Of a stretch of 52,156 nucleotides of DNA, positions 35,786 to 39,722 are shown one piece after another. The number at the start of each line of letters is the position of its first letter. Positions within the stretch are counted from its first letter, which is position 1. The stretch lies in assembly GCA_030682615.1 (NCBI GenBank), contig JAUXNY010000099.1:1-52156 (forward strand), in the 5' to 3' direction. Source of the stretch: Candidatus Aquicultor sp. (lineage in GTDB: Bacteria; Actinomycetota; Aquicultoria; Aquicultorales; Aquicultoraceae). A program made the translations under genes and the position numbers. The notes beneath the pieces are model-generated. The model saw nothing but the letters and a program-made list of their open reading frames with translations, made no database searches and was not told the DNA's origin.

Positions 35786-35814
35786 ATTATATTAAATTTG
35801 TGTTACGTTGTCAA
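35786..35814 (-). promoter_or_regulatory. Consensus sigma-70 promoter of the GOGAT operon
   Basis: On the minus strand TTGACA (35809-35814), a 17-base spacer and TATAAT (35786-35791) match the sigma-70 consensus in every base. A GTAAC element in the spacer resembles a GlnR half-site. Transcription would run left through the leader terminator to the glutamate synthase genes. Confidence 0.8.
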
Positions 35815-35994
35815 ACGCTGAAATCCATCAAAAACGTAGTCGAAACAGATTCGTTGCCTCATATAAAAAGTACTTGAACTTTCAACATTTTTCAATCACA
35901 GCGCTGTCTTGCCATCACAAAGACTATAGCGTATGGTTTGAATTAGCAGTTATAAACACAAGAAATACGTTTGATAAGGACAAGAGTACCACTC

Positions 35995-36084
35995 ATGAAA
36001 TTACCGAAACTGTATCTGGAAACATCAGTCTGGAATTTTTATTATGCAGAGCCGATAACGCCCATGGAGGTTTCAGATGAGTAA
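35995..36084 (+). pseudogene. Truncated PIN-domain toxin fragment
   Basis: The 29-residue frame starts MKLPKLYLETSVWNFYYAE, the typical first strand of a PIN-domain ribonuclease with its leading acidic region, but ends in TAA shortly afterwards, where a full PIN protein needs about 130 residues. The remainder is not found downstream. It overlaps the start of the following small gene by eight bases. A deletion in a toxin-antitoxin locus is the simplest account. Confidence 0.45.
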
Positions 36085-36265
36085 GTATGACAAGTCGCTA
36101 ACTGAAGTGTGGAAATGGAAGGAAAGCGTTTATCAAGACGTAAAAGATTTAACACCCAAAGAGTTCATCGATAAAATTAAACGTGATGCAGATCAGGTGT
36201 TGAAAGAGAGCGCGATTGAGTTGGAAACAATCCCAGCGAAAGAAGACCGTCGCAAGACCGGCTAG
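36077..36265 (+). CDS. Small antitoxin-like protein
   Basis: A 62-residue acidic-basic protein, SKYDKSLTEVWKWKESVYQD at its start, then KDLTPKEFIDKIKRDADQVL. It resembles small partners encoded beside PIN toxins, but I cannot assign a family firmly. The ATG at 36077 has GGAGG six bases upstream, so it is well placed for translation. With its toxin broken, it may be a leftover or act on a toxin elsewhere. The 135 bases between it and the CRISPR array hold nothing I can identify. Confidence 0.5.
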   Translation: MSKYDKSLTEVWKWKESVYQDVKDLTPKEFIDKIKRDADQVLKESAIELETIPAKEDRRKTG

Positions 36266-36400
36266 TATTCAGAGGACTAGATCATAACCCTAGCTGATAC
36301 GAGCTAAATTATTTCTTGATAAGTGATACGGCACTGTTCTTGAGCAATAAGAATTGGTAATACCTCAAGGACTCGAGTCGGGCACCGCATCCTAAGTATT

Positions 36401-36558
36401 GTTCATCCACGCCCCTGCGCGAGGGGCGACCCGATACCACCGTGCATGCAGTCGCGGATACGACGTTTCAATCCACGCCCCTGCGCGAGGGGCGACGCCG
36501 AGGACGCGGCAACCATATGCGACATGACAGTTTCAATCCACGCCCCTGCGGGGAACTT
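36401..36558 (-). CRISPR. I-C-type repeats and chimeric I-C/I-E repeat at the leader-distal end of the array
   Basis: Three repeat units differ from the rest. 36401-36430 is a 30-base unit GTTCATCC + ACGCCCCTGCGCGAGGGGCGAC; 36465-36496 is a 32-base unit beginning GTTTCAATCC with the same end, a standard type I-C repeat in shape; 36530-36558 begins as the I-C repeat (GTTTCAATCCACGCCCCTGC) and ends as the I-E repeat (GGGGAACTT). Spacers between them are 34, 33 and 32 bases. The hybrid is 29 bases long and keeps the 61-base phase of the I-E array. Confidence 0.85.
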
Positions 36559-36590
36559 AAAAAACACATACGACGTGGTGTAGTTTGTCG

Positions 36591-38388
36591 CGGTTCATCC
36601 CCGCGCCTGCGGGGAACTTTTACGGTTTCTGCGCTCCGACAATATTACTACCGGTTCATCCCCGCGCCTGCGGGGAACTTGTTCCAACCTTCGTCAAGTC
36701 CGAAAAGATAAGCGGTTCATCCCCGCGCCTGCGGGGAACTTGGCGTGTTAGTGCCTGCCACGTTGCGGACAACCGGTTCATCCCCGCGCCTGCGGGGAAC
36801 TTGTTGCAATGGTGCTGATTATAGATGCCGTCGCCGGTTCATCCCCGCGCCTGCGGGGAACTTTTTAAACTCTTCCGTCTCACGAACAGGGTCTCCGGTT
36901 CATCCCCGCGCCTGCGGGGAACTTTTTTATAATGTTGTCTCCGACCAGCGCCAGCGCGGTTCATCCCCGCGCCTGCGGGGAACTTTACCTATTTTGGCTA
37001 TATGGCGATAATGTGGGCGGTTCATCCCCGCGCCTGCGGGGAACTTGATTTACCCTCCATCATAAAATCAAATGTTCTCGGTTCATCCCCGCGCCTGCGG
37101 GGAACTTTCCAGCAAGTTGATTAAGTAGAGACTGGCGACCGGTTCATCCCCGCGCCTGCGGGGAACTTGCTCTGATTGAAACGGGGGAGAGGGGGGCTGG
37201 CGGTTCATCCCCGCGCCTGCGGGGAACTTTCGGCTGCAAGTTTGAGCCTATCCTCGATAACCGGTTCATCCCCGCGCCTGCGGGGAACTTTCATCGGCAC
37301 GATCACAGAGCCTCTATATTACCGGTTCATCCCCGCGCCTGCGGGGAACTTTCAATAACTAGCGCTAATTGAGCTAGCCCCAACGGTTCATCCCCGCGCC
37401 TGCGGGGAACTTACTCTGATAACGCCCATGTACCACAAGTTCGGCGGTTCATCCCCGCGCCTGCGGGGAACTTTTTACCGAGTTCGAGCCGTCACTGATT
37501 TCGTACGGTTCATCCCCGCGCCTGCGGGGAACTTTTCTTCATGTTTTCTCTGGCAGCAGGCGAAAGCGGTTCATCCCCGCGCCTGCGGGGAACTTGATAC
37601 GCTGACAGCCCAGACCGCGGCCAAGGCCGGTTCATCCCCGCGCCTGCGGGGAACTTACGGGCTCAGGGAATCGCGAATGGTACTGTTACGGTTCATCCCC
37701 GCGCCTGCGGGGAACTTGGAGGGTGTTACAAGCCCCTCCGTTGAAAAATCGGTTCATCCCCGCGCCTGCGGGGAACTTATCCAAAACCAACACGCCACCG
37801 CTCATATCATCGGTTCATCCCCGCGCCTGCGGGGAACTTATCTATTCGCACAATGTCTACATGCTGCATGACGGTTCATCCCCGCGCCTGCGGGGAACTT
37901 AGACCGACAACAATCATCAGCATCTGCACAAGCGGTTCATCCCCGCGCCTGCGGGGAACTTGCCGCATTGCGGATGTCGTCGGCCTTGTTGAGCGGTTCA
38001 TCCCCGCGCCTGCGGGGAACTTTTGGGGTGGGCCGGGGCTATCGCTACGGTAGGCGGTTCATCCCCGCGCCTGCGGGGAACTTAGTTTTGTCATGCCTTC
38101 GTCCTCCTCAGTTGTCGGTTCATCCCCGCGCCTGCGGGGAACTTGGAACAAGCGTTGATGTGCTGGGGCATTCTGCCGGTTCATCCCCGCGCCTGCGGGG
38201 AACTTGCCACCTACATTAATCGTAGCATCATTAATCACGGTTCATCCCCGCGCCTGCGGGGAACTTAGCAAGGAGCGCACCAAAATAAAATGTAGCCGCG
38301 GTTCATCCCCGCGCCTGCGGGGAACTTCTCTAAGGTGGTTGCCGTTCCATCAGCTATCGCGGTTCATCCCCGCGCCTGCGGGGAACTT
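36591..38388 (-). CRISPR. Type I-E CRISPR array, 30 repeats
   Basis: Thirty identical-looking 29-base repeats occur with a strict 61-base period and 29 spacers of 32 bases. On the plus strand each begins CGGTTCATCC and ends GCGGGGAACTT; on the minus strand the order is AAGTTCCCCGC...GGGGATGAACCG, with a CCCCGC/GCGGGG hairpin as Cas6e needs. The cas operon and leader lie to the right, so transcription runs leftwards and the newest spacers are near 38388. I could not match any spacer to a target by eye. Confidence 0.98.
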
Positions 38389-38510
38389 ACCAAACATAGG
38401 TTCGTTCATCTTACGACACTTCAAGTGTGCGCTTCTGCTGTTTTTCTAAACTATTATCCATTTGTGCAATTAAGTATCTACTATACATAACGCCACAAAA
38501 CCGCTTATCT
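38389..38510 (-). promoter_or_regulatory. CRISPR leader region
   Basis: An AT-rich stretch of 122 bases between the last repeat and the cas2 stop codon. Adjacent to cas2 and the identical repeats, it is in the position of the leader where new spacers are added and from which the array is transcribed. No individual promoter boxes were assigned. Confidence 0.7.

Positions 38511-39722
<1,212 letters not shown>

What the first reader, a model, noticed from the sequence alone, without database searches (positions are those of the whole stretch)
36401..36558. CRISPR array with I-C-type repeats and hybrid I-C/I-E repeats at the old end
Seen: the third unit joins the I-C 5' part (GTTTCAATCCACGCCCCTGC) to the I-E 3' part (GGGGAACTT), and the first unit may be the reciprocal hybrid (GTTCATCC then an I-C end). 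The hybrid keeps the 61-base phase. This is what recombination between two different arrays at the shared CGCCxCTGC-like core would leave. Only I-E cas genes are present, so spacers in the I-C part may be fossils or need another Cas6/Cas5.
Basis: partly seen in the sequence, partly recalled or inferred. Interest (0 to 1): 0.72.

Follow-up and report, generated by a model that had tools for sequence, protein, structure and literature searches.

The report
CRISPR array fused to older array
A bacterium's type I-E CRISPR array ends in two leftover units of a different type, I-C, joined through one half-and-half repeat; this looks like the scar of two CRISPR arrays being spliced together, and similar scars turn up in about a dozen other bacterial genomes.

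Summary
Read in the array's own direction (minus strand), the window holds an I-E cas operon, an I-E leader, 30 identical 29-nt I-E repeats with 30 spacers of exactly 32 nt, then one hybrid repeat (36530-36558), one perfect 32-nt I-C repeat (36465-36496) and a degenerate terminal I-C repeat (36399-36430). The hybrid is the first 14 nt of the I-E repeat plus the last 21 nt of the I-C repeat, overlapping in 6 bp (CGCAGG), flanked by a 32-nt I-E-length spacer and a 33-nt I-C-length spacer. The I-C repeat is identical to the terminal repeat of an I-C array in a same-family genome that has cas8c. A congener has I-C repeats in the same gene neighbourhood. No cas8c was found in the window's genome, so the tail is a fossil. 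Recombination between an I-E and an I-C array, losing the I-C leader side, is the best explanation. Reciprocal-hybrid status of unit 1 is not supported. A scan of about 85,000 species found eleven further I-E-to-I-C junctions, several with their own hybrids, and one relative has another. No earlier description was found in the held library; the opposite order could not be tested at scale.

The parts
36399..36430 (-). terminal (oldest) I-C repeat, degenerate 3' end
   Evidence: first 26 nt identical to unit 2, end GGATGAACAA instead of GGATTGAAAC
36431..36464 (-). 34-nt spacer of I-C length
   Evidence: I-C spacers in the same-family array are 33-35 nt
36465..36496 (-). intact 32-nt I-C repeat
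   Evidence: identical to the terminal repeat of the I-C array in G007 and to a repeat of congener G001
36497..36529 (-). 33-nt spacer of I-C length
36530..36558 (-). hybrid repeat: I-E first 14 nt, I-C last 21 nt, 6-bp overlap CGCAGG
36559..38388 (-). type I-E array: 30 identical 29-nt repeats and 30 spacers of exactly 32 nt
38389..38510 (-). I-E leader
   Evidence: the 300 bp upstream of the first repeat align at 87% over 222 bp to the same stretch upstream of the I-E array of same-family genome G005
38511..38825 (-). cas2e
   Evidence: TIGR01873
38803..39726 (-). cas1e
   Evidence: TIGR03638
39723..40418 (-). cas6e
   Evidence: TIGR01907
40394..41110 (-). cas5e
   Evidence: TIGR01868
41115..42173 (-). 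cas7e
   Evidence: TIGR01869
42228..42752 (-). cse2/cas11e
   Evidence: TIGR02548
42781..44403 (-). cse1/cas8e
   Evidence: TIGR02547, PF09481
44404..47175 (-). cas3
   Evidence: PF18019, TIGR01587

Best explanation
This is the scar of a fusion between a type I-E array and an older type I-C array. A crossover or deletion joined an I-E repeat to an I-C repeat at a 6-bp shared stretch (CGCAGG) in the hairpin. It kept the I-E leader, cas operon and younger I-E repeats, and lost the leader side of the I-C array and any I-C cas genes. The I-E Cas1-Cas2 and leader then probably went on adding 32-nt spacers at the leader end. Shown: the hybrid anatomy, spacer lengths, leader type, absence of a detectable cas8c, and I-C relatives. 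Inferred: that the joining step was microhomology-mediated or unequal recombination, and whether the partner array lay next to it or came in on other DNA. The last I-E spacer still has a normal I-E 5' handle. The two I-C-side spacers do not, and the predicted hybrid hairpin is half as stable, so those two spacers are probably inert.
For: Hybrid = 14-nt I-E prefix + 21-nt I-C suffix with 6-bp overlap; its 7 differences from I-E all match I-C. Spacers are exactly 32 nt on the I-E side and 33 and 34 nt on the I-C side. Leader is I-E, not I-C. I-C repeat identical in same-family G007, which has cas8c. Congener G001 has an I-C repeat-spacer-repeat upstream of the same gltB/GATase genes. No cas8c and no Cas10 palm-domain hit in G000. 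Cse1 was not found in congeners G001-G003, and the window's Cas1 is 93% identical to that of G005, whose GATase is only 76% identical, so the I-E module may have arrived by transfer. Eleven more loci and G012 show I-E-to-I-C junctions at different positions.
Against: The parent, unfused I-E and I-C arrays were not found side by side in any congener. The flank just outside the I-C repeats differs between this genome and G001. The window is from a draft genome and reads were not available.
Confidence: 0.82

Rival explanations
1. The three odd units are simply decayed I-E repeats at the old end of the array.
For: The terminal repeat of arrays is often heavily mutated (stated in PMC11472070), and unit 1 does look decayed.
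Against: The hybrid matches the I-C repeat over 21 contiguous nt and unit 2 is a perfect 32-nt I-C repeat found identically elsewhere; the 30 I-E repeats have no mutation at all.
Confidence: 0.02
2. Assembly chimera: an I-C array and an I-E array were wrongly joined in the draft genome.
For: The genome is a 153-contig draft; congener contigs break at or near this spot (G001 inside an I-C repeat, G003 about 240 bp away), as assemblies do at repeats.
Against: The two parent repeats share only 6 bp at the junction, so the half-and-half k-mers should exist in reads; similar junctions occur in a dozen independent assemblies; G001 carries the I-C repeats near the same genes.
Confidence: 0.06
3. Stepwise takeover: the I-E adaptation module with its leader captured an orphan I-C array by recombining into its first repeat, so the array grew on as I-E from that point; a repeatable, directional route by which I-E systems adopt old arrays.
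For: The order I-C, hybrid, I-E from old to young fits; 12 of the 13 genomes with composite arrays have no cas8c hit.
Against: One crossover between two finished arrays gives the same product. Only this order was searched at scale; the reverse order was checked in just 36 class genomes and in viral contigs. Junction positions vary and several fall inside shortened spacers, which looks like undirected deletion.
Confidence: 0.1

Closest known systems
Type I-E CRISPR-Cas
   Same: Full cas3-cse1-cse2-cas7-cas5-cas6-cas1-cas2 set, 29-nt repeats, 32-nt spacers, I-E leader
   Different: Array ends in a hybrid repeat and two I-C units
Type I-C CRISPR array (e.g. G007 here; Nitratidesulfovibrio vulgaris plasmids)
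   Same: 32-nt repeat identical to a repeat of G007, spacers 33-34 nt; N. vulgaris plasmid records, known from general knowledge to carry I-C arrays, match at about 76%
   Different: No leader, and no cas8c detected in the genome
Recombination between CRISPR arrays (stated to be rare, citing Kupczok et al., in PMC11472070)
   Same: Exchange at repeats
   Different: Here the partners are arrays of two different subtypes and the crossover lies inside a 6-bp match, not in identical repeats

Membership tests
Type I-E CRISPR-Cas | signature cas8e (cse1) and cse2 with cas6e, cas1e, cas2e | tested here: met
Type I-E CRISPR-Cas | 29-nt repeats with 7-bp hairpin and 32-nt spacers | tested here: met
Type I-E CRISPR-Cas | activity: spacer acquisition and crRNA processing | not testable with these tools
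   needs small-RNA sequencing or an acquisition assay
Type I-C array (tail units) | 32-nt repeat of the GTCGC...GTGGATTGAAAC class linked elsewhere to cas8c | tested here: met
   identical repeat ends G007's I-C array; cas8c and cas7c lie with the same repeat type on G007:C44
Type I-C system in this genome | cas8c (PF09709) | tested here: not met
   no match in G000
Reciprocal I-C/I-E hybrid (unit 1) | I-E 3' end that cannot be explained by small deletions of the I-C end | tested here: inconclusive
   GGATGAAC shared with I-E, but equally two 1-nt deletions; not where a single crossover would put it

The most novel reading that the evidence does not exclude
Type I-E systems across many phyla repeatedly take over orphan I-C arrays by recombining their leader and first repeat into them, so composite arrays with hybrid repeats are a recurrent, directional stage in CRISPR evolution and the I-C tail spacers may still be used through the I-E machinery.
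Probability: 0.1. Interest if true: 0.65.

Novelty: new variant of a known kind. Interest (0 to 1): 0.42.

Why it matters
Exchange between arrays is usually discussed within one repeat type. A clean cross-subtype scar, with about a dozen parallels, shows that arrays of different subtypes can be spliced. It also shows that array tails can preserve a record of a CRISPR system that the genome has since lost, and that repeat-based classification can mislead at array ends.

Tried and rejected
Decayed I-E repeats (rejected by the 21-nt I-C suffix and the perfect unit 2). A living I-C system in the genome (no cas8c). A type III owner of the I-C-like repeats (no Cas10 palm hit in G000-G003; most hits of that family in other genomes are weak and probably GGDEF cross-matches, since E. 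coli rings too). Reverse-order junctions: none in 36 class genomes; in viral contigs all hits in both orders were chance matches. Protospacers: the array has no megablast match in phage records. In the wide scan most hits were a dispersed non-array element or chance matches and were set aside. Rfam gives only a sub-threshold CRISPR-DR9 hit on unit 2. Literature searches turned up no title or abstract describing I-E/I-C hybrid repeats, and four papers were searched for the terms without one.

Full report
What is there. The window is contig C44 of a 2.14 Mb draft genome (153 contigs). A complete I-E operon runs on the minus strand from cas3 (47175) to cas2 (38511); each gene passes at least one curated Cas model, and all but Cas3 pass an I-E-specific one. 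After a leader come 30 identical 29-nt repeats, AAGTTCCCCGCAGGCGCGGGGATGAACCG, with 30 spacers of exactly 32 nt. At the old end sit the hybrid AAGTTCCCCGCAGGGGCGTGGATTGAAAC (36530-36558), a 33-nt spacer, the I-C repeat GTCGCCCCTCGCGCAGGGGCGTGGATTGAAAC (36465-36496), a 34-nt spacer and a terminal I-C unit with a decayed end (36399-36430).

The hybrid. It shares its first 14 nt with the I-E repeat and its last 21 nt with the I-C repeat; 14 + 21 exceeds 29 by 6, so the two sources overlap in CGCAGG. It differs from the I-E repeat at 7 places, and all 7 agree with I-C. In 200,000 random 7-substitution versions of the I-E repeat the best shared suffix was 5 nt. The spacers on either side have the length of their own subtype: 32 nt towards I-E, 33 and 34 nt towards I-C (I-C spacers in the same-family array G007 are 33-35 nt). 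The predicted fold of the hybrid keeps the I-E hairpin register with one mismatch, at -7.0 against -14.3 kcal/mol.

Where the I-C part comes from. The unit 2 repeat is identical to the terminal repeat of an I-C array in same-family genome G007, whose other repeats differ by one base; G007 has cas8c and cas7c beside a second contig-end stretch of the same repeats. Congener G001 has one identical complete I-C repeat, a 33-nt spacer and a second repeat cut by the contig end, upstream of the same gltB and GATase genes (DNA about 94% and 90% identical) as in the window, though separated from them by different genes. G003 shares the window's flank up to position 36158, where its contig ends. No cas8c was found in the window's genome or in G001-G003, so the I-C units have no visible effector of their own.

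Where the I-E part comes from. The 300 bp upstream of the first repeat align at 87% over 222 bp with the same stretch in G005; the I-C leader of G007, compared by eye, is different. Cse1 was not found in the three congeners. The Cas1 and Cas2 proteins are 93-95% identical to those of G005, while its GATase is 76% identical. This suggests the I-E module moved between genera, though it does not prove it. In G007 a hydrogenase cluster ending in HycI lies about 2 kb from GATase with no I-E or I-C repeat between; in the window the whole CRISPR island lies between HycI and GATase. The hydrogenase proteins are only 39-53% identical, so this is a similar neighbourhood and not a proven empty site.

Is it unique? 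One scan of about 85,000 species genomes for an I-E repeat end followed at the right distance by GTGGATTGAAAY gave 78 stretches. By inspection most were a dispersed element in Azoarcus, Accumulibacter and Thiocystis genomes, or chance; eleven were I-E-to-I-C junctions. Seven are clear (L042, L052, L060, L077, L087, L098, L107); L045, L046, L057 and L097 are short remnants. G012, in the window's class, has another. L060 runs at least 24 I-E repeats into at least six I-C repeats. L052 has its own hybrid with a different 6-bp overlap and two intact I-C repeats behind it; L107, L087 and L042 have further hybrid-like repeats at other points, the last two without an I-C repeat behind them (for L042 and L107 the I-C partner was taken from the class pattern, not from the genome, and for L087 the script's suffix count failed on the final T, so it rests on reading). 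In L077, L097 and L098 the join lies inside a shortened spacer. Of the 13 genomes with composite arrays (these eleven, G012 and the window's) only one, that of L077, has a cas8c hit; many are incomplete drafts, so this is a soft result.

How it most likely arose. Variable join positions, some in spacers and some in short matches inside repeats, suggest that deletion or exchange joins an I-E array to an I-C array at more or less random points, and that the survivor keeps the I-E leader and cas genes. The window's case fell inside a repeat. The search covered only this order at scale, so direction cannot be claimed.

Limits. No reads, no strain series and no all-genome scan of the opposite order were available. 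Cross-subtype hybrid repeats were not found described in the held library, but most subscription papers are not in it.

Noticed in passing
L004:6051-6082; L160, L161, L162 (rpsB-tsf spacer of G001, G003, G002): All four genomes of the genus carry one or more I-C-like repeats, mostly decayed, between rpsB and tsf; in three of them the stretch also holds a TCAGCCCTAAAGGGC hairpin. The other family members examined show no such repeat there, though G008's spacer is partly masked.
   Followed up: partly
L034:7435-7466 (G002:C1:97434) and L137:1501-1532 (G002:C22:21053): Two more solo I-C-like repeats in intergenic DNA of congener G002, a genome with no cas8c hit.
   Followed up: partly
L041, L047, L058, L070, L103, L035 and other hits: Azoarcus, Accumulibacter, Thiocystis and Thiocapsa genomes carry many dispersed copies of a roughly 120-nt element with hairpins that ends in an I-C-repeat-like ...GGGCGTGGATTGAAAC; no Rfam family reached its threshold in the three loci tested.
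   Followed up: partly
L144 and L145 (G005): Same-family genome G005 holds both a full I-E system and an I-C system with 49 matching I-C repeats, unfused, on different contigs.
   Followed up: no
window 35800-36270: The strip between GATase and the array holds short frames shared with G003; the same spot in G002 holds other small genes and in G001 an HD-domain gene, so it looks like a hotspot for variable genes.
   Followed up: no
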